Source: Actinoplanes sp. NBC_00393 (GTDB taxonomy: Bacteria > Actinomycetota > Actinomycetes > Mycobacteriales > Micromonosporaceae). From it: a stretch of DNA of 64,000 nt. This document shows positions 25,086 to 40,900 of the stretch, one piece after another. The translations under genes were made by a program, and so were the position numbers. Under the pieces are notes generated by a model. The model ran no database searches. It saw only the letters and a list, made by a program, of their open reading frames with translations, and was not told where the DNA came from. The DNA lies in NCBI RefSeq assembly GCF_036053395.1, contig NZ_CP107942.1:5670501-5734500 (forward strand), read 5' to 3'. The stretch's first letter is position 1. Each line of letters starts with the position of its first letter.

Positions 25086-25793
25086 TCAAGCGGGGATGAG
25101 GAGGCCGGCTGCTGTGGTCAGGTCGGGGACGATGACTGTGGCGTGGGGTTCGTCGGGGCTTTGGGCGTACTCCCCGGTCTGGACCCGGATGGAGCGGGCA
25201 CCCAGCGCGACCGCCACGGCCATGTCCTTGCCCGGGCGGTCGCCGATCACCACCAGCTCGGCCGGGTCGATGCCGAGGGTGGTGGCGGCGTGCCGCAGGC
25301 CGCCGGGGTGGGGTTTGCGGGCTGCGCGGCCGCCGAGTTCGTCGGTGATGACGATGGTGATGAACGCGTTGGTCAGGCCCGTTGCGGCCAGTTTGGCGCG
25401 CTGGATGAGCGGGTTGCCGTCGGTGAGGCAGGCGATCGGGTAGTGGGCGGCGAGCGCGGCCAAGGCGTCGGCGGCGCCGGGGTAGAGCGGGAGCCGGCGG
25501 GGGCGGTAGCCGGTGAAAGCGGCTACGAGGGTGGGGACCAGTTCGGCGGCTTCGTCGGTGGGGAGGCCGTAGGCGGCCAGGGCGCGGTCGATGGTGCCGC
25601 CGCGGTCGGAGCCGGCTACCAGTTGGCGGCGGACCGCGTGGGCGAGCCGGATCGGGTCGAGGCCGTGGGTGGCGCCGGCGCGGCCTACCGCGCGGGAGGC
25701 ACCGTAGAGGTAGCTGGCCTGCGGGAACAGGGTGTCGTCGAGGTCGATGACGATGCCTGCGGGTGCGGGACCGGTCCAGGTGGGGGTGGTCAT
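25086..25793 (-). CDS. HAD family hydrolase (phosphatase)
   Basis: A 235-residue HAD phosphatase with all four motifs: I VIDLDDTLF (nucleophile Asp near residue 17), II CLTDGNP, III KPHPGG and IV VIGDRPGKD. The helical C1-type cap lies between motifs I and II. It belongs to the group of small-molecule phosphatases such as phosphoglycolate or sugar-phosphate phosphatases; some relatives sit in sialic acid or nucleotide-sugar operons. It is 332 bp downstream of the epimerase gene on the same strand, so it could be a late member of that operon, but the gap makes this uncertain. Confidence 0.9.
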   Translation of the reverse strand: MTTPTWTGPAPAGIVIDLDDTLFPQASYLYGASRAVGRAGATHGLDPIRLAHAVRRQLVAGSDRGGTIDRALAAYGLPTDEAAELVPTLVAAFTGYRPRRLPLYPGAADALAALAAHYPIACLTDGNPLIQRAKLAATGLTNAFITIVITDELGGRAARKPHPGGLRHAATTLGIDPAELVVIGDRPGKDMAVAVALGARSIRVQTGEYAQSPDEPHATVIVPDLTTAAGLLIPA

Positions 25794-25905
25794 GAGCGGC
25801 GCTCCTCAGGCGCAGGCCGGCATGCCGCCGGCGACGGACGGGCACTGCGAGGTGCAGGCGGCCGCACCACTGCCGAAGGCCGCCCGCAGCGAGAAGCACT
25901 CAGCC

Positions 25906-26025
25906 GCGGCAGACGGCGAAGCGAGGCGCGCGGCAGACGGCGAAGCGAGGCGCGCGGCAGACGGCGAAGCGAGGCGCGCGGCAGACGACGAGGCGAGGCG
26001 CGCGGCGGACGGCAAGGCCGAGGCC
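25906..26025. repeat. Five tandem 24-bp repeats
   Basis: The unit GCGGCAGACGGCGAAGCGAGGCGC is repeated from 25906 in 24-bp steps; the first three are exact and the last two are diverged. The array lies in the 332-bp gap between the epimerase stop and the HAD start. Read as protein it would give (AADGEARR)n on the plus strand or Ala/Ser-rich runs on the minus strand. No start, domain or ribosome site supports a gene here. Confidence 0.9.
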
Positions 26026-26125
26026 GAGGCCGTGCCCGTAACAGAAAGCGACCCCGCGACGGACGGCAAGGCAGAGTCTGCAACGGATGCCGGGCCCAGG
26101 GCGGACGGCGAGGCAGTGTCGGCGT

Positions 26126-27256
26126 TCATGCGGCGACCCACGGCCGGGTGCCATCGGTGTAGTCCGGCTCGTCCAGCGCGAGCAGCGGATCCACCTCGGG
26201 AGATGCCAGCAGCGCAGCCACCCGCGGCCCGGTGTCGCCGTCGCCGTAGGGGCAGGGCAGGGCCGCGATCCGGGCAAGCGTCCCCGGCTCGCTGAGCCGC
26301 CGCGCGGCGTCCACCGCGTCGCTGCTGATGCCGGTGAGGATCGCGGTTCCGGCTTCGACGCCTTCCCAGCGCGGCGTCGACCGCCGCAGCACGACGACCG
26401 GCACGCCCAGGTAGGCGGCCTCCTCCTGCAGCCCACCGGAGTCGGTGACCACCACGCGCGCGTGGGCCAGGGCCTGCAACAACTCGTCGTAGGGCAGCGG
26501 ATCCTCGCAGGTCACGCCGGGGAGGGCCGCGAGCTTGTCGTAGAGGCCTTCAGCGAGCAGACGCGCCCGGGTCCGCGGGTGGATCGGGAACCGGACCGGG
26601 CCGAGCGAAGCCAGCTGAGCGATGACCTCGACCAGATCAGCCAGCCGAGCCGGATCATCCACGTTGGAAGCACGGTGAGCAGTGACGAGGACCCCGTTAC
26701 GGGATGACGGCGCAACCGGCACGACTCCCCGGTCACGCAGAGCATCGATCACCGGGTTGCCGACGACGAAGACCCGCGACGCCGGCACGCCCTCAGAAGC
26801 CAGGAAGGCAGCAGCCCGCGCGGTAGGCGCGAAGTGCAGCTGCGCGGTAGCCGCCGCGACCCGCCGGTTGACCTCTTCGAGACTGCGCGGGTTGAAGCTG
26901 CGCAGCCCCGCTTCCAGATGGGCGAACGGAATGCCGGCACCCCGCGCGGCGAGCGCGTAGGCCGGGACAGTGTGGGTGTCGCCGAGCGCGAGCACGACAT
27001 CCGCCGGCACGCCCGCAAGGACCTGCGCAGCGCCGGTGAGCAGCGCACCGAGCCGGCCTGGGCCGTTCGGCAGCGTCAGGCGTACATCGGGAAGGAGACC
27101 CAGATCGAGCTGCACATCCCCGCTCATCGCCGCATCGGCGTGCTGTCCGGTGTCCACGGCCGTGACCGTGTGCCCGGCGGCGCGCAACGCGCGCACGACC
27201 GGCGCCAGCTTGATCACTTCGGGGCGGGTGCCGAAGGGAACCAGGATGTGTTTCAT
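26126..27256 (-). CDS. wecB: UDP-N-acetylglucosamine 2-epimerase (non-hydrolysing)
   Basis: A 376-residue GT-B-fold epimerase that interconverts UDP-GlcNAc and UDP-ManNAc in the cytoplasm. Family motifs are clear: FGTRPEVIKLAP at residues 8-19, LALGDTHT, HLEAGLRSFN, VTAHRASN, and DSGGLQEEAAYLGVP with RWEGVEAGT near the C-terminus. The usual HRxEN reads HRASN, a small deviation. The ATG overlaps the stop of the exosortase/ATP-grasp gene (ATGA), so it is the last gene of a five-gene translationally coupled set. It probably supplies ManNAc-type sugar to the glycosyltransferase in that operon. Confidence 0.92.
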   Translation of the reverse strand: MKHILVPFGTRPEVIKLAPVVRALRAAGHTVTAVDTGQHADAAMSGDVQLDLGLLPDVRLTLPNGPGRLGALLTGAAQVLAGVPADVVLALGDTHTVPAYALAARGAGIPFAHLEAGLRSFNPRSLEEVNRRVAAATAQLHFAPTARAAAFLASEGVPASRVFVVGNPVIDALRDRGVVPVAPSSRNGVLVTAHRASNVDDPARLADLVEVIAQLASLGPVRFPIHPRTRARLLAEGLYDKLAALPGVTCEDPLPYDELLQALAHARVVVTDSGGLQEEAAYLGVPVVVLRRSTPRWEGVEAGTAILTGISSDAVDAARRLSEPGTLARIAALPCPYGDGDTGPRVAALLASPEVDPLLALDEPDYTDGTRPWVAA

Positions 27257-29265
27257 CGAGCAGCTCCGAGCGGGTCGGTGATCGGGGCGCCGTCGGCGTC
27301 GTAGTAGACCTCGGCGAAGTGCCGGGCCATGCGAACGCCGGGCTGGTAGGTCAGGCCGGGCAGCGGCGCGCCCGGGTTCAGGATCCCTTCGAGGTACGCG
27401 GTGACGACGTTCGCCCCGGCCGCCAGGGTGAGTGGCAGTCCCCCGGAGAAGCGCGGGTTCACTTCAACGACCGTCACCGCGCCGTTGTCGGCCACGAACC
27501 CCTGCACGTTGGCCGGCCCGGTGTGGCCGACCGCGCGCAGCGTCGCGGCGACGACCTGGGTGACGGCGTCGGAGGCGAAGGTGGTGCCCCGGGTGGAGAT
27601 CCCGCCGCGGGTCTCGTCGCGCCACCGCGGTACGCAGACGGCGAGCGTCCCGTCCCGGTCGACCAGCGCGTCGGCGGTGAATTCACGCCCGCCGAGCCGG
27701 GTCTGGGCGATGGCGCCGGGGACGACGGCGAAGGCGTGGGCGAGTTCGCGGGGATCGTCGACAAACATGACGTCGCGGCTGCCGCGGCCGCGGGCCGGTT
27801 TGACCACCCACGGGCCGGGGATCATCTCGGCGGTGGCGGCGTTCCAGGCGGTGGCCGGGTGCGGTACGCCGGCCTGGTACAACGCGGCCGCGAAGGCGAC
27901 CTTGTCGAGGCAGGCGTCGGCGGAGTTCAGGTCGGGCAGCCAGGTGCGTACGCCGAGCCGCTCGAGGGTCCCGGTCAGCGGGGTGAGCGCCGCGTACTCC
28001 TCCGCGACCGTGCAGATCAGCGCGGCCGGCCGGTGTTCGTCGAGGGTGGTGAGCAGCGCTTCGGCGTACCCCGGCTGGTCGGCCCGGGGCAGCACCGCCG
28101 CGCGACCGGCCAGCCGAAGCCCGACCGCATCGGGGTTGGCATCGAGAGCCAGCACATGGTCGCCGTTCGCCTGCAGGGCCTTGATCACGGCAACGCCGGC
28201 CGGCCCGCCCGCGCCGGTGACCGCGATGAGCCGCCCGGTGGGCGTGCCCCCGTCGTGCTGCCGGGGCGCGCGCATCAGCCAGGCCCGGGCCCACAGGCGC
28301 AGCGCGATGACATCCTGCCCCGCGACCGGCTCCCACTGCCGGGCGGCGACGGCCGTGGCCAGGGAGTCGAGCACCAGCGGGTCGGTCTCGTGGGTGGCGA
28401 CCGCGAGCAGGGTGGCGGTGTGCACGCCGAGGCCCTTGGCGGCGAGTTCGCGGACGATGACCGCGCGGCGCCCGGCGCTCTCGTGCCCGACCCGGTAGTC
28501 GACGCGCCGCTGCTCACGGCGGCGGGCCAGCCGGTTGGAGACGGCCTTGGGCAGGATCCTGCGGTGCAGGATCGCCGCGACGTTGGCGCGCCCGGTCTCC
28601 GGTGCGGCTTCGACCGGTACGCGGTGCCCGAGCCCGGGCCGCCCCCACGCTTCCGGACGGTCGGCGGTGTGCCGGCCGGTGTGGTCCTGCTCGGCCCGCT
28701 GAGAGTCGTACATGGTCAGTCCGATCATGATGAGCAGTCCGATCAGGGTGTAGGCGAAGTTGATGACGGCGCCGACCCAGTCGTGGAAGAAGATCAGCGC
28801 GTCGATCGCGAAGTAGCGGCCGGCGAGCAGCGACAGGAGCAGCCGGACCTGGTTGGCGGCGAGGACGAACAGGCCGGCGACGGCGAATCCGACGATGACC
28901 TGCGGGCGTTCGCGCAGTGCGACCAGGGCGAGGGCGGCCAGCGCGAGGACGCTGGTGAGGATGGAGCAGGAGCCGGTCATCTCGGCGACCACGGGTTCGA
29001 AGCCGGGGCCGAAGACGATGAACGAGTCGCCGAGGGCGGCCGAGATGCGGTCCACCCCGAGCGCGTCGATGATCGACGCGGCGAGCGAGACCTCGAAGCG
29101 GCGGGCCCACTCGATGAGCAGCGTGTACCCGCCGACGCAACCGGCTACGGCCAGGAGCATCTCGAGCAGGACGAGCTGTCTGCGGCGTACCGTCGCGGTG
29201 GTGATCGTCCGGCGGCTCGCCCGCCGGATCAGGGTCCGCTCCAGCCGGCTGGTCACGAGGCTCAT
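27253..29265 (-). CDS. Exosortase-like transpeptidase fused to an ATP-grasp ligase
   Basis: A 670-residue fusion. Residues 30-185 hold about five membrane helices with the exosortase/archaeosortase triad: Cys100 in GSC, Arg141 in ANQVRL and His161 in FFHDWVG. A charged linker and helical region (190-335) follow, then a Rossmann-type pre-ATP-grasp part (IAVTGAGGPAGVAVI, 346-360). The ATP-grasp domain (about 450-650) has VVKPARGRGSRDV (Lys489) and VVEVNPRFSGG (Glu601, Asn603) for ATP and Mg. Exosortases cleave C-terminal sorting signals; ATP-grasp enzymes form amide or ester bonds. The start at 29265 overlaps the GT2 stop (ATGA). I do not know of a described enzyme with this exact fusion. Confidence 0.82.
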   Translation of the reverse strand: MSLVTSRLERTLIRRASRRTITTATVRRRQLVLLEMLLAVAGCVGGYTLLIEWARRFEVSLAASIIDALGVDRISAALGDSFIVFGPGFEPVVAEMTGSCSILTSVLALAALALVALRERPQVIVGFAVAGLFVLAANQVRLLLSLLAGRYFAIDALIFFHDWVGAVINFAYTLIGLLIMIGLTMYDSQRAEQDHTGRHTADRPEAWGRPGLGHRVPVEAAPETGRANVAAILHRRILPKAVSNRLARRREQRRVDYRVGHESAGRRAVIVRELAAKGLGVHTATLLAVATHETDPLVLDSLATAVAARQWEPVAGQDVIALRLWARAWLMRAPRQHDGGTPTGRLIAVTGAGGPAGVAVIKALQANGDHVLALDANPDAVGLRLAGRAAVLPRADQPGYAEALLTTLDEHRPAALICTVAEEYAALTPLTGTLERLGVRTWLPDLNSADACLDKVAFAAALYQAGVPHPATAWNAATAEMIPGPWVVKPARGRGSRDVMFVDDPRELAHAFAVVPGAIAQTRLGGREFTADALVDRDGTLAVCVPRWRDETRGGISTRGTTFASDAVTQVVAATLRAVGHTGPANVQGFVADNGAVTVVEVNPRFSGGLPLTLAAGANVVTAYLEGILNPGAPLPGLTYQPGVRMARHFAEVYYDADGAPITDPLGAAR

Positions 29266-30641
29266 CGCGCGGCCACCAGTTCGGGGGCGACCGTGCTGGT
29301 GGCGCCGGAGCGCGCGGTCTTGGACCAGCTGTAGGTGGTGCCCCACATGCCGTCGAAGTAGGCCTTCGTGGCGGTCAGGATCGACATCCCGAAGGCCGGG
29401 ATGAAGCCGACCAGCATCCAGACGGCACGGCGTTCGACGCGGCCGAGCACGAGGCCGACCGCGAGCTCGGTGAACGGCCCGGCGAACAGCAGCGCGGACA
29501 ACGACAGCATCTCGAAGGCCGAGGCATCTCCGATGCCGAAGGCCCGGAGAACGATCAAAATCAGACCGAGACCGCAGAGTACGGGCACGTGGTACACCCA
29601 GAGGAAAAGCATGGTCTCGAGCTTTTCCATGGGCGAGAGATGCCGGGTACGCAGAATCGGGCGCCAATAGTCACGCAGGCACTTCTGGTGTCCCCGCGCC
29701 CACCGGTAGCGCTGCCGCCAGAACCGGCTGGACGACAGCACCGCCTCCTCGAAGTCGACGGCCGACGGGTCGTAGCGGACCCGCCGCCCGCCGAGGAGCA
29801 GCCGCAGGGTGAGGTCGGTGTCCTCGGTGACGGTGTCGACGTTCCAGCCGCCGAGGGCGCGGATCAGGTCGGTGCGTACCGCGCAGTTGGCGCCACCGTA
29901 GGCGGGCAGCTCGAACAGGGCCTGCCGGCCGTACTCGTTGACCAGGTAACCGGACAGGTAGTCGATGAAAATCGTGGACGCGAGGCTGGACTCGATGCCG
30001 TTGCGGACCACGCAGCGGCCCATGACGGCGCCGACCTTGGGCTCGCGGAAGTGCCGGACCAGCCGGCGCAGCACGCTGGCCTCGGGCTGGTGGTCGGCGT
30101 CGAAGATCACCGCGATCTCGGAGTCGACCAGTGCGAGGGCGTCGTTGAGGGCGCCGGACTTGCCGCCGCCGGCGCCGGGCTCGCGGTGCAGGACGCGCAG
30201 GCGCGGGTTGGCCGCGGCCCAGCGGTCGAGGATGGCGCCGGTGCCGTCGGTGGAGGCGTCGTCGACGACCACGACGGTGAGCCTGTCGGCCGGGTAGTCG
30301 AGGGACAGCAGGGCGGAGACCATGCCGTCGACGACGAGTTCCTCGTCCTTGCAGGCGACCAGGACGGCGACCGAGGGGGTGAAGTCCTCGACGCCGACCA
30401 GGGGCGCGTCCAGATCCTTCTCGGCCCAGCGGGCGGCGGCGACGGCGAACGCGAGGTGCCGGAAGAAGAAGACCAGGAAGACGACGTTGAGCACGGTGGC
30501 GCACCAGCCGAGCGTGGCGTCCACGCCGAACAGCGCGAACGCGGCCGCGACCAGCAGGGCGTGCCCGAGCAGGCCTTTGCGGAAGTTCTTTCTGGAGTGC
30601 GCCGGGGACGCCCCACGGCGGTGGCGCCCCCGGCCTGTCAT
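29262..30641 (-). CDS. Membrane processive glycosyltransferase, GT2 family
   Basis: A 459-residue membrane glycosyltransferase. Two helices (24-70) precede a cytosolic GT-A domain: VVVVDDAST (Asp127-128), DADHQPE (DxD at 181-183), TED (Asp274 base) and QRYRW (310-314). The QxxRW motif marks processive enzymes such as hyaluronan, cellulose or poly-GlcNAc synthases. Three to four C-terminal helices (340-440) form the export channel. The ATG overlaps the PIG-L stop, and its own stop overlaps the exosortase start. With a neighbouring GlcNAc-type deacetylase and UDP-GlcNAc epimerase, an amino-sugar polymer is likely, but the sugar is not proven. Confidence 0.9.
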   Translation of the reverse strand: MTGRGRHRRGASPAHSRKNFRKGLLGHALLVAAAFALFGVDATLGWCATVLNVVFLVFFFRHLAFAVAAARWAEKDLDAPLVGVEDFTPSVAVLVACKDEELVVDGMVSALLSLDYPADRLTVVVVDDASTDGTGAILDRWAAANPRLRVLHREPGAGGGKSGALNDALALVDSEIAVIFDADHQPEASVLRRLVRHFREPKVGAVMGRCVVRNGIESSLASTIFIDYLSGYLVNEYGRQALFELPAYGGANCAVRTDLIRALGGWNVDTVTEDTDLTLRLLLGGRRVRYDPSAVDFEEAVLSSSRFWRQRYRWARGHQKCLRDYWRPILRTRHLSPMEKLETMLFLWVYHVPVLCGLGLILIVLRAFGIGDASAFEMLSLSALLFAGPFTELAVGLVLGRVERRAVWMLVGFIPAFGMSILTATKAYFDGMWGTTYSWSKTARSGATSTVAPELVAAR

Positions 30642-31309
30642 GCCGGGACCTGCGCCGGGAAGGCGGCCATCTCGGTCAACATGGGCATCTCCATCACGGG
30701 GGCCAGGTCCCACACGAAGCGGGCCGGCATGAACGCCTCGGCGTAGCGGACCCGGGCCTGGGCGCCGAAGTGCCGGGCCGAGGCGGCGACCACCTCCGGG
30801 TCGACCATCGCCGAGTTCTCGACCTGGCTGCGGTGGCAGGACAGGGCGTCGATCTTGCGGTCCAGGTGGGCCGAGATGTCGACGAACACGGTCGGTTCGA
30901 AACGGGTGGTGGACGGGCTGCGGTAGTGCAGGATCCGCCGGCCGTGCCGGGCCGCCGACAGGGTCGCCGCGGTGACCGCCCGGTGGTCCTGGTGCGAGTC
31001 GTCGGGCGCGTGCACATAGATGACGTCAGCGTCGACGTCGCGGATCGCCTTCTCGATCAGCGCGATCGTCGGCGCGTCGGCGGTGACCGCGCAGTCCACC
31101 AACCGACCCCACTGCAGCAGGCAGTCGAGGTTGCGGGCGGCGGCCTCGGCCTCCGCGCGCCGGCCGGCGGTGCTGCCCGGACCGTTCTGCCCGCCGGTGA
31201 TGACGAGCATGGTCACCGGGTCGCCCGCGGCGCGGTGGGCGGCGAGGGCGCCGCCGCAGCCGAGTTCGATGTCGTCGGGGTGGGCCCCGATCGCCAGGAC
31301 GCTGCGCAT
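30638..31309 (-). CDS. PIG-L family zinc deacetylase
   Basis: A 223-residue LmbE/PIG-L enzyme. The zinc site is AHPDD (His10, Asp12-13) near the N-terminus and HQDH (106-109) in the middle; Asp12 is the expected base. Members remove acetyl from N-acetylglucosamine residues, as in MshB or GPI PIG-L. The ATG at 31309 shares a base with the preceding stop (TGATG). Its stop overlaps the GT2 start. In this operon it would deacetylate a GlcNAc-containing lipid or glycan before or after polymerisation. No signal peptide is seen, so it acts in the cytoplasm. Confidence 0.92.
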   Translation of the reverse strand: MRSVLAIGAHPDDIELGCGGALAAHRAAGDPVTMLVITGGQNGPGSTAGRRAEAEAAARNLDCLLQWGRLVDCAVTADAPTIALIEKAIRDVDADVIYVHAPDDSHQDHRAVTAATLSAARHGRRILHYRSPSTTRFEPTVFVDISAHLDRKIDALSCHRSQVENSAMVDPEVVAASARHFGAQARVRYAEAFMPARFVWDLAPVMEMPMLTEMAAFPAQVPA

Positions 31310-31845
31310 CACGACTGGACCGCGTTGCGGCGCTTGCGCCAGAAGAAGACTCCACCGCCGATCAGGCCCGCGAACAGCAGCGCCACGATCGGGCCGGAAC
31401 CGTTGCCGCCGGCCGGGAGGCTGACGTCGCGGCCGCACGTGGGCTTGTTCCAGGTGGCGGTGACGGTCTTGCCGCCGACCGTCCAGGTGACCTTGGTGTC
31501 CTTGGCGATCCAGCCGGTGGAGAAGCTGGCCTTGTGGGTGCCCGGCTCGAAGCGGGTGGTGACCGACCCGTCGGTCTTGCCGCTGCCGCTGAACTCCAGC
31601 TTGTTGTTCGACCCGGCGTCGATCTTGCCGGGCGTCTTGCTGGTGTTGACGTAGCCGAACACCGCCCGGTACGTGTTGTTCTTGGTGTCCTGCACGACAC
31701 AGTCGCAGGTGGGCGTGCCGGAGAAGCTCTGCCAGGTGGCCGCGGCCGGCCCCGAGTTGAGCACGAGCAGCGTCACGATCGCGGCGACGACGGCCGCGCT
31801 GGTGGCGGTGAGCAGCGCGCCGCGGCGGCGCAACGACTTGGGCAT
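31309..31845 (-). CDS. Small secreted protein with LPAGG C-terminal sorting signal, candidate exosortase substrate
   Basis: A 178-residue exported protein. Residues 1-37 form a signal peptide (LRRRG basic, then AAVVAAIVTLLVL). The mature domain has a CDC motif and another Cys near 137, and looks beta-rich (repeated Thr/Gly/Trp strands). The C-terminus is a tripartite sorting signal: LPAGG (143-147), hydrophobic helix (152-169) and RKRR (170-173). GGAGG lies a few bases before the ATG. It is the first gene of the operon that encodes the exosortase-like fusion, and no sortase gene is in the window, so that enzyme is the best candidate processor. The domain itself is not recognised. Confidence 0.8.
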   Translation of the reverse strand: MPKSLRRRGALLTATSAAVVAAIVTLLVLNSGPAAATWQSFSGTPTCDCVVQDTKNNTYRAVFGYVNTSKTPGKIDAGSNNKLEFSGSGKTDGSVTTRFEPGTHKASFSTGWIAKDTKVTWTVGGKTVTATWNKPTCGRDVSLPAGGNGSGPIVALLFAGLIGGGVFFWRKRRNAVQS

Positions 31846-31941
31846 GAACTACCTCCGCAGATTCGGGTCACGTCTCTATCGGCGCGCAGGCGTTCGGCTT
31901 GAGGAGGAGCGGGCTTGGTCCGCCTCGATAGGCTGTTGATC

Positions 31942-34900
31942 ATGACGCTGACCGATGTGCTGGTCCGGGCCGCGACCGAGGCGCCGGAGCAGGGCGTCGC
32001 ACACGTCGACGGAGAGCGGTTCACCAGCTACGCGCAGCTGTACGCGGACGCGTTGCGGATCGGCGGCGGGCTGCGGGCCGCGGGCTTGTCCCAGGGCGAT
32101 CCGATGCTGCTGGTCACCGAGGACAGCGCGGAGTTCCTGTCGCTGTTCTGGGGTGCGGTGGTCGCCGGCGTGGTCCCGGTGCCGCTGCCCCCGGAGCCGG
32201 CCCGGATCGAAGCGGTGCGGCGCCTGCTCGGCCGGCCGCCGGCCTTCTCGGCGGCCGAGCTGCGTTCAGCGTTGCCGCTCGCTGAGCCGGTGCCGGTCAG
32301 TCCGGACGACCTGGCGCTCCTGCAGTTCTCTTCCGGCAGCACCGGTACGCCGAAGGGCGTCGAACTGACCCACGGCAACCTGGCGGCGAACGTCGAACAG
32401 GCCGCCCAGGCATGCGCCGGCGGCCCGGACGACGTGGTCGTCACCTGGATGCCGTACTTCCACGACATGGGCTTGATCGGCACCCACCTGACGCCGATGC
32501 ACCTGCGGTGCAAGCAGGTGCGGATCAGCCCGCTCGCATTCGCGAAACGCCCCGCGCACTGGCTGCAGGTCGCGGCCGAGCATCGCGCCACCATCCTGTC
32601 GGCGGCGAACTTCGCGCTCGCCCTGGTCAACCGCCGCGTGCCGGACGTGATCCTCGACAAGCTGGATCTGAGCAGCGTGCGGCTGGTCATGGTCGGCGCG
32701 GAACCGATCTCCCCCACCGTTTGGCGGGCCTTCACCGGAAAGTTGCGCCGGGCGAAGCTCGATCCTGGAGCACTGCAGCCGGTGTACGGGCTAGCCGAAG
32801 CTACCGTCGCCGTAGCCTGCCCGCCGATGGGCGAACTGGCCCGCCCACACCGGTTGAGCCGGGCGGCCCTGGCGCGCGGGGTGGCGGTGGACGCCGGCCC
32901 GGGTGCGCCGGCCGTGGAGTTCATGGACGTCGGCTTTCCGGTGCCGGGCTGCGCGATCCGGGTGACCGACGACGCCGGCCTGGTCCTGGAGGAAGGCCTC
33001 GTCGGTCACATCCAGGTGCGCGGCCCGAACGTCAGCCGCGGCTATCACGGCGGCGACTCAGCGCTGGCGGACGGCTGGCTGCAGACGGGCGATGTCGGGT
33101 TCCTGAGATCCGGTCGGCTCTGCGTCACCGGGCGGCACAAGGACGTCCTGTTCGTGCACGGCCGCAACTTCCACGCCTCAGACCTGGAAGAGGTAGCGGC
33201 CGGAACGCCGGGCCTCGGCCCCGGCCCGGTCGCAGTGGTAGGCGTGACCGATGCAGCCGGCGGCCGGGAACGCGTCGTGGCCTTCCTGGCGGCGCCAGCA
33301 GTGCGTGCCGACCCGTCAGTGGCTGACCGCGTTCGCGGGCGGCTCGCGGAGGCCCTCGGCTACGACGGCGTCGAGGTGCGCGTGGTCCCGAACGGCACGT
33401 TCGAGCGCACCACCAGCGGAAAGCTGCGCCGCGAGACCTTGCGGGAGCGCATCGCGGCCGAGGCGCCGCCGATTCCGGAGGCCTACGCACGGTCGGCGCA
33501 CGTCAAGGCCGCGCCGCCGCAGAGCACACCGCCGCGGACCCGGGTGGAGACCGAGCAGGTGGTCCGGGCGGTCTGGGCTCGCGTGCTCGGCGTTCCGGTG
33601 GAGCGGATCGGGCCCGACGACCGGTTCCTGGCGATCGGCGGGTCTTCGCTGGCGGCGATGGAAGTGCTGGCGGGGTTGGAGGACGCGTTCGGGCGTACCC
33701 TCGATCCGGTTCTGTTGCGTGATTGCGCGACCGTCGCCGCATTGGCCGACCGGCTGCTGACCCTTGACTCGGGCCCGGCCACCCACCCCGCGCGAGCCGC
33801 CGCGCGGACCGATCCGGCCGCGGAGATCGCGATCGTCGGCATGGCCTGCCGGTTCCCGGACGCCGATACGCCCGAGCAGTTCTGGGACAACCTGCTGGCC
33901 GGCCGCGACAGCGTCGGCCCGGTGACCCGCTGGATCGGCGGAGGCCATGGCGCTTTCCTGGCTGATCCGAGCCGATTCGATGCCGGATATTTCGGAATCG
34001 GGGACGCCGAGGCCCGCTACCTCGACCCGCACGCCCGGATCTTCCTGGAGTTGGCCCACGAAGCCCTCGAACGCGCCGGCTACGCGGGCCCACGCCGCCG
34101 CAACCGACGAATCGGCGTGTTCGCTGCCGTCGGCGAGAGCGGCTACCCATCGCTGATAGCCGAAACCAGCGCCGGCGACCCACCAGCCTGGGCCGGCACC
34201 GGCAATCCCTTCGCGCTCACCGGGACGCTGCGCAATCTCACCGCTGCCCGCGTCGCGCACCTGCTCGATCTGCACGGACCCGCCCTCGCGATCGACACCG
34301 CCTGCTCCTCTGCGCTGGTGGCGCTGCATCTGGCCCGGCGCAGCCTGGCCGCCGGCGACTGCGACATCGCCGTGGTGGGCGGCGTCAACCTGAACCTCAC
34401 CGCCACCGGCCACCATCTCCTGGCCGCCGCGCAGGCGCTCTCCCCCACCGGCCGCTGCCGGGCCTTCGACGCGGACGCCGACGGTTTCGTGCCGGGCGAG
34501 GGCGGCGCCGCGCTGGTGCTGACCCGCCTGCCGGATGCGGGCGGCGACGCGGTGCTGGCCGTGCTCCGCGGTACAGCCGTCAACAACGATGGCCGCTCAC
34601 TGAGCCTGATGGCACCGAACCCGCTGGTACAGCAGGAAGTGATCACCGAGGCCTACCGGGAATGCGGAGTTGATCCGGCCGAGGTGTCCTACCTGGAGGC
34701 CCACGGCACCGGCACAGCGGTCGGCGATCCGATCGAGGCCCGCTCGCTGGCGCACGCTTTCCCGCCGCTGCCGGACGGCCGGATGCGGCTGCTCGGCTCG
34801 GTGAAGACCAATATCGGTCACCTGCTCAACGCGGCGGGCATGCCGGGCCTGGTGAAGGTGATCCTGGCCCTGCAGCACCGCGAACTACCGCCGTCGCTGC

Positions 34901-37900
34901 ACCACAACCGCCCGACGCCACGCTTCGACCTGGCGGGTGCGGGCTTCGAAGTGGTCACCGAGCGCCGGCAATGGACCGGCCCGCTGGTGGCCGGCATCAA
35001 CAGCTTCGGTTTCGGCGGCACCAACGCCCATGCCATCCTGGCAGCCGCGCCGATGCACGCAGTCCCACCACGAATCGGCACGTCGAGCCCGCATCTGCTC
35101 ACCCTGTCGGCCCGCTCGGCCGCCGCACTCCGGGCCGCCGCCGAAGACCTCGCCGACTACCTGCGCGACCATCCCGACCTGCGCGAAGCCGACGTCTGCG
35201 CCACCGCCTCCACGAATCGCGACGACGGCCCGCACCGGATTGCGCTCACCACCGACGGTGACCTCGCCGCGCAACTGGCCACGGTAACTCCCGGCCCGCC
35301 GATCGGCCGGGCGCCCCGCGTAGCGTTCCTCTTCAGCGGCCAGGGCACCCAAACCCCCGGCCAGGGCGCGGAACTCTACGCAACCGCCCCCGTCTTCCGC
35401 ACCACCCTCGACGAAGTCTCGGCAGCGGTGGGCCCGATCGCCGGCCGCACCCTCGTCGACTGGTGCATCAACCCGGACATCCCCGCGGAAGACCTGGCCC
35501 GCACTGAAGTCACCCAACCTTTGGTGGTCGCTTTCGCGGCGGCACAGGCCGCCCAATTGCAGGCCTTCGGGGTACGCCCGAACGCCGTGACCGGCCACAG
35601 CATCGGCGAGTTCGCCGCCGCAGTGACCGCCGGAATGCTCACCCCCGTCGAAGCCGTCCGTCTGGCCGCCGAACGGGGCCGCCTGACCACCACCCACGCC
35701 GAACCGGGCGCGATGATCGCGGTAGCCGCCGCCCCCGAGACCCTGGCCGGCGTACTGAAATCCGGCGTAGTCATCGCCGCCCACAACGCCCCCAACCGCG
35801 TGGTCCTGTCCGGCCCACCCGAGGCGATCAACGACGCCACCGCCCGACTGACCACCCGCGGCATCGCCACTCTCCCGCTGGCCGTCTCGCACGCCTTCCA
35901 CTCCCCCGCGATGGCCCCGGTCGCCGCAGCGCTGCCGGCACCCACCGTGCGACCTGCGAACATTCCCCTGCTGAGCACGGTCACCGCCGATTGGGACGCC
36001 CCCTTCGACACCGCCTACCTGACGGCCCACGCCGTGCAGCTGGTCCGCTTCGCAGCGGCCGCCGACCGCTTGCGCGCCGCCGGCTACGACACTTTCGTCG
36101 AGCTGGGCGCCGGCGTCGCGCTGGTCCCGCTGATCAAATCCGCATCGGTACGTCCAGCCGGCCGCACCACCCGCGAACTCCTGGACACCGCCGGCGACCT
36201 GTGGCGTCGCGGCGTACCCCTCGACCGCACCCACCTCGACGCCGGCACCCGCCGGGTCCCCGTGCCCACCTACCCGTTCCAGCGCCGCCGCCACTGGATC
36301 ACCGACCCGGCCCTCTCGGTCCCCCGCTGGGTCGACGCCCCGCTCCCCGCAACCCCCACCACCGGCCCGGTAACCGTGCTCACCGCGGGCGATCCGCATT
36401 CCGCCGCGACCGCGCTGACGACCACACCCCGCACCGGCCACCTGCTGCTCGTCACCACCGACCTCTACGCCGAACATCCCCGTCCCGGCCACGCAGTCTG
36501 GTCCGGCTTCGCGATGGCCCTGGCCGACGAGAACCCCAACCTCGGGGTACGCGTAATCGACCTCTCGTCCACCGCCTCGGACGAGGCCCGCCGCACCGCC
36601 GTCGAACAGGAATCAGCCGCACCCCCGTCGCCCGGCCCCGCCGAGATCGTCACCTGGCGCAACGGCCGACGGCTGACCCGCGAGTTCGTCCCCGCCCCGG
36701 CCGCCACCCCGCTCGACCTGCCCCCGAACGGCCACTACCTGCTCGTCGGCGGCGCCGGAGCGGCCGGTGCCACCATCGCCCGCCACCTGGCCCGCCGCGG
36801 AAACCCCCGTCTGCTGCTGGCCGGCCGCTCCCCCGAACCCACCGCCCTGCTCACCGAACTCCGCGAGCTCGGCGCCACAGCCACCTACCAGGTAGCGGAC
36901 ATCTCCACTCCGGCGGACGTGACTGCCTTGGTCGCCGACCACCGCTTCGACGTGGTGATCCAGGCCGCGGGCATCGTGCGTCCCGGCAGCCTGCGAGCCA
37001 AAACCCCGGCCGAGATCCTCGACGGCCTCGCCGCCAAGGTGCAGGGCACCACCCTGCTCGCCGAAGCTGTCCGCCCACACCGGCCCCTGTTCGTGGCCCT
37101 GTCCTCCATCTCCTCGGTGATCCCCGGCCTGGCCGGCGCCGTCGGCGACTACGTGGCCGGAAACGCCTACCTCGACGCGTTCGCCGCCGCCGAACGATCC
37201 GCCGGCCACCGCTTCGTCGCCGTGAACCTGCCCCCGCTGACCGGCGGTGGTCTGGCCGAAGCCCACCTGCCGGCGACCCCCCGCGCCCTGCCGCTGGAGC
37301 AGGTGCCGGACGTCCTGTGGGCAGCCGCCGCCCTGGACACCGCCCAGGTGCTGGTCACCGCCCACGCGAACACACCGGCAGGAAGCAGCGCCCCCGGTCC
37401 CAGTACGACGCCTGCCGGCACGGCGACGGTCAGCGGACGCGGCGAGCCGCCCGGGGCCGGCTTCGACGGGTTGGTGACGATCGTCCGGGAGCTGCTCGCC
37501 GGACCGCTGAACCGGGAGCCGGAGACGATCGGGCTGGACGAACCGTTCCTCGCCCTCGGCCTCGACTCGCTCACCGCCGTCGACCTGGTCAAAGCCCTGG
37601 AAACCCGCCTCGGACGAACCCTGTCGACGACCCTGTTCTTCGAACACCGCACCCTCGGCGAACTGGCCCGCCATCTGGCCGGGGCGCCGGAGTTCGCGCT
37701 CAGCCCGGTACAGCTCGCGTTCCACACCACCGGCCGGCTCTATCCGGAGGTTCCGGCCTACGCCTACGTCCGGCAGACACTGACCGGCCCGATCGACGCC
37801 ACCCGGCTCGGCCTCGCCTTCGCCGAACTGGAACGACGCCATCCGATGCTGCGCGTCCGGTTCGGCCCGCAGTCGCAACGGTTCGCCGCAGCCGGCCCCG

Positions 37901-40900
37901 GGCAGCCCACGTGGTTCGCCGTGACCGATGTGGCCCGGCCAGTGACAGAACTCGAGGCCGAACTGCGCAACCGCACCTTCGACCTGACCCGCGAAGCCCC
38001 GATCCGCGCAGTGCTCGCCGTCGCGAACCCCGACCTCGCCCATCTGATCCTGGTCGCGCATCACGCCGCAGCCGACGGCTTCAGCCTCGCGGTCCTCGGC
38101 GACGAGTTGTGGACGCTGTACGCGGGAGCCGAGCCGCCGCCACCGCCCCACGCCACGTTCGCGGACCACGAGGCCACCCGGACTCCGCCGACCGGTGACG
38201 ACCTGGAATTCTGGCGATCGACTCTGGCGACCTACCCCGGCCTCGCGTTGCCGTTCGATGGTGAACCGGACGCCGAACCGAAGGCGCCGTTCGCCGTACA
38301 CCACAGAAGTCTCGACCCGGAACTCACCGCGCGCCTCACCGCTCAAGCCCGCACCGCGGGGGTGTCGCTCTTCCATCTGCTGCTCGCCGGCTACGTGCGG
38401 TGCCTGGCCCGCTGGAGCGGGCAGTCCACTGTGCCGGTCGCGGTGGCCCGGGCCGGCCGCGACGCCCGGCTGACCGGAATAGATCGGATGGTCGGCCCGT
38501 TCGCCGACACCCTGCCGGTGCTCGCCGACGTCTCCCCCGATGAACCCGCCACCGCCCTCGCCGACCGGCTCCGCCAGGCCTGGCTGACGGCTGAGCAGCA
38601 CGGCTCGGTCTCCACCGTCGACATCGCCCGCATGCTGGCCGCGAGCACCGCCGGGCCCCGCACCGCGAGCCCCGCGAGCTTCAGCTACGCCCGCTTCCCC
38701 ACCGCGGCGCCGGCCACGCATCAAATCGCAGCGACGTACGCCGGAACGGCCTCCGCCGCGACCCGACTGGGCCTGGTCTGCTTCGAGGCTGAAGGCACCC
38801 TGCACTTCTCGTGGAACTATCCGACCGCCCTGTTCCACGCCGCGACGATCGAACGCTTCGCCACCGAACACCTCGCCGAACTGTCCGCCCTGGCCGGCGC
38901 CGCCGACGCGCCCACCGAACGTGCCGAACCGCCTGCCGATGCCGCCGGGCTGCCGTCTGAGGCCGCCGAGGCCGCGCCGATCGTCGAACGGATCCGGGCG
39001 CAATGCCACCGCACACCCTCGGCAATCGCGGTGCTCACGGAAGGCGTACCCCTCAGTTATCTTGACCTTGATCTTGCCTCGGATCGCCTCGCCGCCCGGC
39101 TGGCGGCGACCGGCGCGTGCAAGATCGGGCTGCTCACCGGGCCGGGTGCGGAAACCGTCATCGGCGTCGTCGCGATCCTCAAAGCCGGTGCCGCGTGGGT
39201 GCCGTTGGACGCCGCCCACCCATCGGCGCGGCTGGCCGACCAGCTCAACCGCACCGGCGCGACCGTCGTGGTCTGCGACGCCACCACCCGCGACGCGGCC
39301 CGGGCGCTCGGCGGCTTCACGCTGGTCGACGGCCGCACGTCCCCGCACGGCCAGCCGCCGCCGGTGACGACCCGGGCGGACGACACCGCGTACGTCATCT
39401 TCACCTCCGGCTCGACCGGCCGCCCCAAGGGTGTTCCGGTGACGCACCGGGCGATGGTCAATTATCTGGACTGGTCGCTGGCGGCGTTCGGCTATCGCAG
39501 CAGCGACCGGCTCGCGCAGACCGCGTCGATCTGTTTCGACGCGTCCGTGCGGCAGTTGCTGGCGCCCCTGCTCGTCGGAGCGACCGTGGTCGCCTGGGAC
39601 CGGGACACCGTCCGCGACCCGGCTGAACTGCTGAAACGCGTCGAACGTGACCGGGTGACGGTGTGGAGTTCGGTGCCGACCCTGTGGGAACGGCTCCTCG
39701 GCGCGGCCGAGAGGCAGCGCCCCGACCTGGCGTTGCGCTGGGTGCACGTGGGTGGTGAGGAGTTGTCGCCGGTGCACGTTCGGCGGTGGTTCGACCTGTT
39801 CGGGCCGGGTCAGCGGATCACCAATCTGTACGGCCCGACCGAGACGACGATCAACGCCACCTTCCACGTGATCAGCGAACGGCCCGCCGACGACGTCACC
39901 CATCTGCCGATCGGCCGCCCGGTCGGCGGCGCGCTGGTCGAAGTGGTCGGCGACGACGGCCGGGTGTGCGCGCCCGGCGAGGTCGGCGAGCTGTACATCG
40001 GTGGGGCCGGGGTGGCGGCCGGCTACCTGGACGACCCGTCGACGGCGTTCGTGCAGCGGCACGGCGCACGCTGGTACCGCAGCGGAGACCGCGCCGTCCA
40101 GGACGCCGACGGCCTGCTCTGGTTCCGTGGCCGCGTCGACGACCAGGTGAAACTCCACGGCTACCGGATCGAGCCGGGCGAGGTGGAGGCGGTGCTGCGC
40201 CGCCACCCGGCCGTCGACAGCGCCGCCGTGCGGGTGGACGGCAGCCGCCTCCTCGCCTGGGTGCAGCCGCGCGGGGAGACTTCGGGGGGCGAGCTTCGCG
40301 CGTACCTCGAAGGGTTGCTGCCGCCCTACCTGGTGCCGGCCCGCATCTCGGTGCTGGCCGCGCTGCCGCTCACCGCAACCGGCAAGATCGACCGCGCCCT
40401 GCTGACGCCGGCGGCCGTGGCCGCCCGCGAACCCGCCGCTCCTCCGGCCACCGCGACCGAACGCCTGCTCGCCCGGGTCTGGTCGCACCAGCTGGGCGTT
40501 CCCGAGCCCAGCCGCGAGGACGACTATTTCGCGCTGGGCGGCGACTCGATCGGCGTGCTGGAGATGTTCGCGGCGTTGGAGGGGGAGCTGCCGTCCCTGC
40601 CCCGGCCGACTGTCATCTACCGGCACCGCACGCTCGCCGCCCTGGCAGCCGCCATCGACGCCGCGCACCCGACCCCGGCCGCAGCGCCCCCGGCCGCAAC
40701 CGGCGCCTTTCCGCTCACTCTCAGCCAGCGCGGTTTCCTGCTGGCCGACGCGATCGGCACGCCGTCGACCTGGTTGGCCGCGCCGCGCCTGCACGGGCCG
40801 CTCGACCTGGATCGCTTCCAGCGGGCAGTCGACGTGCTCGTCGACCGGCATCCGATGCTGCGGACCGTCTTCCGGCCGCCCATGCAGCAGGAACTCCCGG

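What the first reader, a model, noticed from the sequence alone, without database searches (positions are those of the whole stretch)
26126..31845. Five-gene operon built around an exosortase-ATP-grasp fusion: candidate new surface-anchoring system
Seen directly: five minus-strand genes joined by 1-4-bp stop/start overlaps encode a small secreted protein with an LPAGG-helix-RKRR tail, a PIG-L deacetylase, a QxxRW processive GT2, a 670-residue fusion with the exosortase Cys100/Arg141/His161 triad plus an ATP-grasp domain, and UDP-GlcNAc 2-epimerase. Known: exosortases cut C-terminal signals, PIG-L enzymes deacetylate GlcNAc, and ATP-grasp enzymes ligate carboxylates to amines. Inference: the system makes an amino-sugar glycan or glycolipid and joins the processed protein to it. 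I know of no described system with this exact fusion.
Basis: partly seen in the sequence, partly recalled or inferred. Interest (0 to 1): 0.88.

Follow-up and report, generated by a model that had tools for sequence, protein, structure and literature searches.

The report
Exosortase-ligase operon anchoring one surface protein
A soil actinobacterium carries a conserved, so far unnamed gene cluster that probably cuts the tail off one small secreted protein and attaches it to a custom-made amino-sugar on the cell surface, with the cutting enzyme and the enzyme that prepares the attachment point fused into one protein.

Summary
Five minus-strand genes overlap by 1-4 bp; a HAD hydrolase follows and belongs to the set (75 of 80 related loci). 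The fusion starts with a true exosortase: it passes TIGR04178, and Cys100/Arg141/His161 are invariant in 77 of 77 relatives. The other active sites are intact. A scan with ATP-grasp patterns alone found the exosortase in 77 of 80 actinobacterial loci held, and all six core genes in 66. Exosortase, linker and ATP-grasp occur as one gene, two or three. Candidate substrates have clade-specific tails: LPxxGNG or LPVDPLG with the fused/EM|G types, VPxGxxGG with the unfused type. Five of 16 unfused-clade candidates carry the 'choice-of-anchor P' ectodomain, whose relatives also end in LPxTG or PEP-CTERM-like tails. XrtP, XrtS and XrtR cut-offs are all missed. Best reading: a dedicated exosortase sorting system in which epimerase, PIG-L, ATP-grasp and GT2 make an aminoacylated amino-sugar acceptor, paralleling with unrelated enzymes the Vim 'linking sugar' of type IX secretion. 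The chemistry is inferred, not shown. New variant of a known kind.

The parts
31309..31845 (-). Candidate substrate, 178 aa: signal peptide, all-beta ectodomain (~40-137) and C-terminal sorting tail LPAGGNG-TM-RKRR
   Evidence: 34 rows, window included; the tail's P invariant, N and last G in at least 90%; AlphaFold2 mean pLDDT 83.8
31309..31440 (-). Tripartite sorting signal within the substrate (LPxxGNG, TM helix, basic end)
   Evidence: (one significant hit in the genome; 150 of 636 first-look candidates scored)
30638..31309 (-). PIG-L family de-N-acetylase; metal and active-site residues intact
   Evidence: PF02585 82.5 bits; 68 of 68
29262..30641 (-). Membrane GT2 with DxD/TED/QxxRW motifs and about 5 TM helices (hydropathy)
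   Evidence: (75 of 75)
28717..29265 (-). Exosortase domain of the fusion (4 predicted TM helices, Cys100/Arg141/His161)
   Evidence: (TIGR04178 25.6 vs cut-off 23); domain edge approximate
28261..28716 (-). Middle HEAT-like linker module of the fusion; its own gene, or joined to either neighbour, in other lineages
   Evidence: (PF13646 listed for some relatives); edges approximate
27253..28260 (-). ATP-grasp ligase domain of the fusion (PRK12767 / PylC-like), cytoplasmic by predicted topology
   Evidence: six positions in 80 of 80; edge approximate
26126..27256 (-). Non-hydrolysing UDP-GlcNAc 2-epimerase (WecB family)
   Evidence: (253 vs 210 bits)
25806..26129 (-). Low-complexity ORF built on a 24-bp tandem repeat, between epimerase and HAD; in A. 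aureus (L008) epimerase and HAD are adjacent; probably not a functional part
   Evidence: (no family)
25086..25793 (-).
   Evidence: 75 of 80 loci

Best explanation
This is a dedicated exosortase protein-sorting system. The small secreted protein is exported, held in the membrane by its LPxxGNG tail, and cut there by the exosortase domain on the outer face through a Cys100 acyl-enzyme. The new C-terminus is passed to an amine made by the rest of the operon. Inside the cell, the epimerase makes UDP-ManNAc, the PIG-L enzyme frees an amine on the amino sugar, and the ATP-grasp domain, held at the membrane by the fused exosortase, ligates a carboxylate (most likely an amino acid) to it. The GT2 places the sugar on a lipid or glycan, and HAD removes a phosphate at some step. 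Shown by sequence: the families, intact active sites, conserved linkage, modular fusion, and clade-matched tails. Inferred: cleavage, the acceptor, the order of steps and the amino acid.
For: Exosortase signature above cut-off and the only TIGR04178 match in the genome; triad 77/77. The scan patterns came from the ATP-grasp only, yet 77 of the 80 loci held have the exosortase and 66 of 80 all six core genes. Three modules occur as EMG 23, EM|G 29, E|MG 10, E|M|G 13 (4 of these with the M hit out of place); one triple fusion with the epimerase (P0035). Tail type follows architecture: LPxxGNG-like in 46 of 53 fused/EM|G loci vs 0 of 27 others; VPxGxxGG 0 of 53 vs 10 of 27; LPVDPLG 4 of 53 vs 0 of 27. 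Five of 16 unfused-clade candidates match choice-of-anchor P, whose relatives also bear LPxTG or VPEP tails. In 39 exosortase-picked regions of the same order, this kind of ATP-grasp and PIG-L occurs only in the 4 with this exosortase type. Hydropathy and charge put the triad outside and the ATP-grasp inside. Precedents: ArtA with an amine lipid as proposed nucleophile (PMC7157517, passages); the Vim linking sugar, amide-bonded to protein C-termini and proposed to be made by deacetylation then amino-acid transfer (PMC7468200).
Against: No biochemistry. ATP-grasp substrate unknown: its only PDB match by sequence is 2pn1, deposited as a carbamoylphosphate synthase large subunit. Three other wecB-type genes in the genome, so the epimerase need not be dedicated. 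Two loci with upstream sequence (L051, L073) have the ATP-grasp and epimerase without an exosortase in the locus; L024 keeps only substrate and exo-grasp. The older Pfam exosortase model PF09721 is just missed (21.6 vs 25.7). In 4 of 61 substrate homologues the motif is LPATGNG, which contains a sortase-like LPATG. Only 10 of 27 non-fused-type loci gave a tail protein under the strict pattern. No flippase recognised: apart from the two substrate groups, no neighbour group exceeded 4 of 36 loci. The fusion structure could not be predicted.
Confidence: 0.6

Rival explanations
1. Polysaccharide locus: the GT2, PIG-L, epimerase and ATP-grasp make an aminoacylated exopolysaccharide of the partly deacetylated PNAG kind, and the exosortase merely releases or trims an accessory protein that binds it without covalent attachment.
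For: GT2 best NCBIfam match is PgaC/IcaA, 129.7 bits; PEP-CTERM exosortases sit in EPS loci (PMC1569441, passages); one relative substrate carries an F5/8 type C domain (L032).
Against: Far below the PgaC cut-off (422); apart from the two substrate groups no neighbour group exceeded 4 of 36 loci, so no shared export partner was seen; tail/exosortase co-variation and gene fusion point to coupling with the exosortase step.
Confidence: 0.17
2. The LPAGG protein is an ordinary sortase substrate processed by one of the five sortases elsewhere in the genome; the exosortase has other targets.
For: 5 sortase genes; TIGR01167 score 15.1 just below its cut-off 15.9, 4 of 34 rows hit it at E up to 0.1 and 1 hits the LAETG model at E 0.005; some sources name relatives 'LPXTG cell wall anchor' proteins; 4 of 61 homologues read LPATGNG.
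Against: Position 4 is G, D, E, Q, A or others in 52 of 52 tails from the loci, never Thr, while N-G is nearly fixed; the gene lies 0-211 bp from a core gene in those 52; no other significant tail of this kind in the genome (150 of 636 candidates scored); sortase-like ORF in 1 of 80 loci (queries from 2 of 5 sortases).
Confidence: 0.08
3. The sugar enzymes make a small soluble metabolite (bacillithiol or mycothiol-like aminoacyl-glucosamine), and the exosortase is a passenger.
For: PIG-L closest NCBIfam match is BshB1 at 99.7 bits, below its cut-off 182.5; deacetylation followed by amino-acid ligation is the bacillithiol/mycothiol logic (recalled, no call).
Against: Exosortase within the locus in 77 of 80, in one ORF with the ligase in 24; a membrane GT2 in 75 of 80.
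Confidence: 0.08
4. The ATP-grasp domain acts on the protein or the exosortase itself, for example activating or capping a carboxylate of the substrate.
For: Physical fusion.
Against: Predicted topology puts ATP-grasp in the cytoplasm and the cut C-terminus outside; does not explain PIG-L, GT2 and epimerase.
Confidence: 0.05

Closest known systems
XrtP / CoaP system (NCBIfam NF012139, NF053846, NF053845)
   Same: Actinobacterial short exosortase beside a GT2 and a secreted protein with a TM-basic tail; wecB-type epimerase nearby in L128; the choice_anch_P ectodomain is shared with 5 of 16 unfused-clade candidates.
   Different: Exosortase, GT and tail models all fail their cut-offs here (18.3 vs 200; 93.3 vs 520; no CoaP_CTERM hit). 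This kind of ATP-grasp and PIG-L was found in 0 of the 35 examined exosortase regions of the order that are not of this type.
Archaeosortase A (PGF-CTERM, Haloferax)
   Same: Active-site-Cys membrane enzyme proposed to pass a cut C-terminus to an amine-bearing lipid whose synthesis genes are adjacent in some Methanosarcina (PMC7157517, passages read).
   Different: There the proposed acceptor is archaetidylethanolamine; here a sugar is inferred.
Wbp/Vim linking-sugar pathway of type IX secretion (Porphyromonas, Tannerella)
   Same: C-2 deacetylation, then amino-acid transfer to the amine (both proposed from genetics and mass spectra), and an amide bond to the protein C-terminus; the Tannerella sugar is manno-configured (PMC7468200). 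The authors speculate that exosortase systems use such sugars.
   Different: Enzymes come from other families (VimE carbohydrate esterase 4, VimA N-acyltransferase; sortase PorU recalled, no call); here PIG-L, ATP-grasp and exosortase.
XrtG and its GT2 (TIGR03110/TIGR03111)
   Same: Gram-positive exosortase paired with a GT2 related to PgaC (family descriptions; pairing recalled).
   Different: GT2 scores 52 vs cut-off 364; the XrtG model is hit by only 1 of 22 exosortases.
Mycothiol/bacillithiol deacetylase-ligase pairs
   Same: PIG-L deacetylation of GlcNAc followed by amino-acid ligation (recalled).
   Different: Soluble metabolite, other ligase family (recalled); BshB1 cut-off not met (99.7 vs 182.5).

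Membership tests
Exosortase/archaeosortase superfamily (TIGR04178) | Signature HMM above curated cut-off | tested here: met
   25.6 vs 23 bits; 21 of 22 aligned exosortases hit at E up to 0.001
Exosortase/archaeosortase superfamily (TIGR04178) | Pfam exosortase model PF09721 above gathering score | tested here: not met
   21.6 vs 25.7 bits; the XrtP control L128 also misses it, 24.0
Exosortase/archaeosortase superfamily (TIGR04178) | Invariant Cys, Arg, His triad in a multi-TM protein | tested here: met
   77 of 77; 4 hydrophobic helices
Exosortase/archaeosortase superfamily (TIGR04178) | Cognate C-terminal motif-TM-basic target in the same genome | tested here: met
   One adjacent target, tail profile E 6.5e-20, next best 0.02 without the LP columns; 150 of 636 first-look candidates scored
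Exosortase/archaeosortase superfamily (TIGR04178) | Protease/transpeptidase activity | not testable with these tools
   Needs bench work
XrtP / CoaP | XrtP HMM at or above 200 bits | tested here: not met
   18.3 bits; 7 of 22 aligned exosortases hit at E up to 0.001, best 2.8e-5
XrtP / CoaP | XrtP-associated GT NF053846 at or above 520 bits | tested here: not met
   93.3 bits
XrtP / CoaP | CoaP_CTERM tail on the substrate | tested here: not met
   No hit at E up to 0.1 among 34 and 16 substrate candidates; the L128 control scores 64.5 vs 35
XrtS / XrtR | HMM at or above 145 / 150 bits | tested here: not met
LPXTG/sortase substrates | TIGR01167 at or above 15.9 bits | tested here: not met
   15.1 bits for P0004
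LPXTG/sortase substrates | Thr before the scissile Gly (definition recalled) | tested here: not met
   Gly in the window; 0 of 52 tails found in the loci; but 4 of 61 database homologues read LPATGNG
Poly-GlcNAc synthase PgaC/IcaA | TIGR03937 at or above 422 bits | tested here: not met
   129.7 bits
Wbp/Vim linking-sugar pathway | VimE (CE4 deacetylase) and VimA (N-acyltransferase) homologues | tested here: not met
   Deacetylase is PIG-L (PF02585) and ligase ATP-grasp; no other broadly shared neighbour in 36 loci; the rest of the genome was not searched for VimA/VimE
Wbp/Vim linking-sugar pathway | Aminoacylated amino sugar amide-bonded to protein C-terminus | not testable with these tools
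   Needs mass spectrometry
ATP-grasp carboxylate-amine ligases | ATP-binding Lys residues and Glu/Asn metal ligands intact | tested here: met
   80 of 80 at six positions; PF02655 54.1 vs 23.2, PF15632 56.6 vs 29.1; roles of the positions recalled
WecB UDP-GlcNAc 2-epimerases | TIGR00236 at or above 210.15 bits | tested here: met
   253.4 bits

The most novel reading that the evidence does not exclude
An exosortase system whose whole acceptor pathway is encoded with it. The protein C-terminus is amide-bonded to an amino acid that the fused ATP-grasp domain has ligated to a de-N-acetylated (manno- or gluco-)samine carried on a lipid or wall glycan. This would be a Gram-positive, independently evolved counterpart of the type IX secretion linking sugar, and the exosortase nucleophile would be readable from one operon.
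Probability: 0.4. Interest if true: 0.87.

Novelty: new variant of a known kind. Interest (0 to 1): 0.72.

Why it matters
What an exosortase hangs its protein on is still open in what I read: a 2020 paper calls it an 'unidentified compound' (PMC7468200). Here the candidate acceptor-making enzymes are few, linked, and in part fused to the exosortase, and there is a single recognised substrate. That makes the question testable in a soil bacterium: one protein to purify, one C-terminus to weigh, and a handful of genes to delete. If the aminoacyl-sugar reading holds, Gram-positive and Bacteroidota systems would have arrived at the same coupling chemistry with unrelated enzymes.

Tried and rejected
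Filing under XrtP, XrtS or XrtR: rejected, all cut-offs missed. XrtP was then found intact in a relative (L128) and used as a contrast; an earlier phylum search for XrtP rang nowhere, controls included, and is no evidence of absence.

Fusion as an assembly or annotation quirk: rejected, seen in 23 of 80 loci as one ORF exosortase-linker-ATP-grasp plus one without linker. Direction (fusion or fission) is left open: the tree is midpoint-rooted, though a starred branch (SH-aLRT 100) separates 26 unfused-type rows from the rest.

LPAGG as a sortase signal: kept only as a low-probability rival. The sortase-neighbour check used 2 of the 5 sortases, since my script failed to extract the other three.

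Further conserved neighbours (flippase, regulator): in 36 representative loci, apart from the two substrate groups (15 and 5 loci), no group was shared by more than 4; one of these is a response-regulator-like ORF in L069, L083, L084 and L086, and several others are in close relatives or look like shadow frames.

PIG-L as BshB, GT2 as PgaC: cut-offs missed.

Structure of the fusion and fold searches: not possible. PDB by sequence for the exosortase profile: no match up to E 1.

My loose first tail filter gave false positives among its 79 rows; the counts in the report come from the stricter. Those patterns were written after seeing the data, so the 46-versus-0 contrast shows clade-specificity, not an independent prediction.

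Paper searches of little use: one search listed 8 of 775 papers, none with the word exosortase; one search listed 20 of 33, none about exosortases by title; one search did not bring the paper behind PDB 6yv7.

One search ended in a script error after printing most of its output; I used only what it printed. One search's output was cut in the middle; the full tail list came.


Full report
What is there. The window (unnamed 11.4-Mb actinobacterial chromosome; nearest named relative Actinoplanes aureus, fusion 89% identical) has the five overlapping minus-strand genes described. Reading the junctions directly: substrate/PIG-L overlap 1 bp; PIG-L/GT2, GT2/fusion and fusion/epimerase 4 bp (ATGA). 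The epimerase also overlaps a repeat-built ORF (25806-26129; 24-bp unit, 4.5 copies), followed by a HAD hydrolase (25086-25793).

Families. The fusion N-terminus passes TIGR04178 (25.6 vs 23 bits), just misses the Pfam model PF09721 (21.6 vs 25.7), and is below the cut-offs of XrtS, XrtR and XrtP (21.3, 19.1, 18.3 vs 145, 150, 200). Its C-terminus is an ATP-grasp of the PRK12767/PylC-like kind (PF15632, PF02655). The GT2 is nearest PgaC (129.7 vs 422) and the XrtP-associated GT (93.3 vs 520). The deacetylase is PIG-L (PF02585), and the epimerase passes wecB (253 vs 210). It is the only TIGR04178 match in the genome, which also has 5 sortases and 3 other wecB-type genes. The fusion N-terminus has four hydrophobic helices; with an Arg-rich start inside, the triad falls on the outer side and the ATP-grasp inside (inference from hydropathy and charge).

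Conservation of the cluster. A scan of the species-genome collection used two patterns, both from the ATP-grasp domain (RFSGGLPLT and GPW[VI]VKP[ARV]xG). It gave 124 relatives, of which the best 80 are held and all were used; ranking by the full-length query favours fused proteins, and 44 relatives were not seen. Profile searches found the exosortase in 77 of the 80; the exceptions are L022 (contig edge), L051 and L073. Counts over the 80: ATP-grasp 80, epimerase 78, exosortase 77, HAD 75, GT2 75, PIG-L 69; all six in 66. The commonest orders are PIG-L-GT-exo-grasp-epi-HAD (33) and GT-exo-grasp-epi-HAD-PIG-L (28). Families named in the records include Micromonosporaceae, Geodermatophilaceae, Pseudonocardiaceae, Catenulisporaceae, Acidothermaceae, Streptosporangiaceae and Acidimicrobiaceae; one record is labelled Acidobacteria MAG (L028). 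The system is patchy: 21 of 300 genomes of the same family at E up to 1e-60, and 3 of 396 across the phylum, own included, with E below 1e-80 (single-sequence query).

Modularity. Exosortase (E), middle module (M) and ATP-grasp (G) occur as EMG 23, EM|G 29, E|MG 10, E|M|G 13 (in 4 of which the M hit lies out of place: L059, L064, L065, L072), E-G 1, E|G 1, no exosortase 3. One relative adds the epimerase to the same chain (P0035/L013). On a tree of the ATP-grasp domain (81 rows) the unfused types form one side of a starred branch (26 rows, SH-aLRT 100); the root is unknown.

Active sites. Cys/Arg/His 77 of 77; six ATP-grasp positions 80 of 80; GT2 DxD/TED/QxxRW 75 of 75; PIG-L six His/Asp positions 68 of 68 (hits weaker than 1e-60 for GT2 and 1e-40 for PIG-L were left out). 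Epimerase: eight positions 77-78 of 78; HAD: six positions 69-74 of 74.

The substrate. P0004 has one copy in the genome. In 34 aligned rows (window included; 26-85% identity to it) the conserved ectodomain residues are two Cys, Tyr, Asn, Trp and others, and the tail keeps P, N and G. AlphaFold2 gives a confident all-beta ectodomain (mean pLDDT 83.8). Tail and architecture go together. Of 53 loci with fused or EM|G architecture, 46 have an LPxxGNG-like tail protein and 4 more LPVDPLG. Of 27 others (which include the contig-edge Actinoplanes locus L022), none has either and 10 have VPxGxxGG, which none of the 53 has (451 ORFs examined, patterns chosen after inspection). In 52 of 52 LPxxGNG cases the gene is 0-211 bp from a core gene (PIG-L 32, HAD 19, exosortase 1). 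Of 61 database proteins found with the substrate profile, 57 have the LPxxGNG-like tail, 4 of these reading LPATGNG; the other 4 lack the motif, one being a 98-aa fragment. In the window's genome the tail profile gives one strong hit (E 6.5e-20); the other 28 hits (E 0.02 and above) do not cover the LP columns; 150 of 636 first-look candidates were scored.

Is the tail an anchor? Of 16 candidate substrates from unfused-type loci, 5 match choice-of-anchor P (118 bits vs cut-off 27 for L083). Among 84 proteins found with L083's protein (itself included), tails include VPxGxxGG (32 by pattern), LPxTG-like (P0227, P0241, P0252, P0257) and PEP-CTERM-like VPEP (P0249, P0260); 34 showed no tail or are partial. 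The same ectodomain thus appears with sortase-like, PEP-CTERM-like and VPxGxxGG ends. The LPxxGNG ectodomain itself passes no NCBIfam cut-off that I saw.

Contrast with other exosortases. In the same order 84 of 397 genomes have an exosortase match (83 over cut-off). I read 39 of those regions, about 9 kb each side where the contig allowed, chosen mostly outside the group f89; L162 was picked for its ATP-grasp and not counted. The other 35 show no ATP-grasp or PIG-L of this kind, though 26 have a more distant epimerase (202-260 vs 545-636 bits) and 32 a more distant GT2 (36-128 vs 695-816 bits). So ATP-grasp and PIG-L mark this system, and GT2 plus epimerase may be common ground.

Mechanism. 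For ArtA the authors propose a Cys thioester and, as acceptor, the amine of archaetidylethanolamine, whose synthesis genes are adjacent in some species (PMC7157517, passages). In type IX secretion, protein C-termini are amide-bonded to 2-N-seryl or 2-N-glycyl amino sugars, proposed to be made by deacetylation (VimE) then amino-acid transfer (VimA), and the authors suggest exosortase systems may do likewise (PMC7468200; outline with abstract, passages and section 20). The present operon supplies the same logical steps from other families: epimerase, PIG-L, ATP-grasp ligase, GT2, exosortase. Confidence: dedicated exosortase sorting system about 0.9; operon makes the acceptor about 0.6; aminoacylated amino sugar about 0.4. 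The ligated group, the sugar, the carrier and the HAD step are not known.

Print. Searches for exosortase with ATP-grasp, archaeosortase/exosortase terms (13; 20 of 237 listed), XrtP/XrtS names (16; 20 of 33 listed), exosortase with glycosyltransferase (49), ATP-grasp with PIG-L and others (69), choice-of-anchor (70; 15 of 17 listed) and linking sugar (90) showed no description of this system in the open library; subscription papers are not held. (host genera) was uninformative. In one search the only paper with both words has them in its reference list.

Noticed in passing
L128:7610-12048, and 21 further regions listed: L128 is an XrtP locus: exosortase, its GT and a CoaP substrate beside a small LAXTG sortase protein and a divergent wecB-type epimerase. 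22 regions without this ATP-grasp have exosortase and epimerase 405-2596 bp apart (only L128 among them was typed), hinting that ManNAc sugars are a general partner of actinobacterial exosortases.
   Followed up: partly
window 25905-26013: 24-bp tandem repeat (4.5 copies) inside an ORF that separates epimerase and HAD; in A. aureus (L008) the two genes are adjacent.
   Followed up: partly
window 31915-43041: Divergently transcribed PKS-NRPS hybrid of about 3,700 aa (AMP-binding, KS, AT, KR, condensation domains), starting about 70-90 bp from the substrate gene. Whether it accompanies the cluster elsewhere was not tested.
   Followed up: no
L032:14903-15949: Second substrate-like protein, LPALANG tail, with an F5/8 type C (discoidin) domain in front of the usual ectodomain.
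   Followed up: no
L013:9710-13201 (P0035): Single chain exosortase-linker-ATP-grasp-epimerase in Actinoplanes sp. KI2.
   Followed up: partly
L024:9237-11746: Actinoplanes philippinensis shows only substrate and an exosortase-ATP-grasp gene without the linker; PIG-L, GT2, epimerase and HAD were not found in the flanks. Decaying or differently organised.
   Followed up: no
L032, L042, L045, L050, L055, L075: Geodermatophilaceae loci with two LPxxGNG-type substrates each.
   Followed up: no
L118:9436-9996, L136:8770-9321, L142:8965-9594: Short actinobacterial exosortases that match XrtR, XrtS and XrtP at 51-98 bits, below all three cut-offs: further unnamed exosortase types.
   Followed up: no
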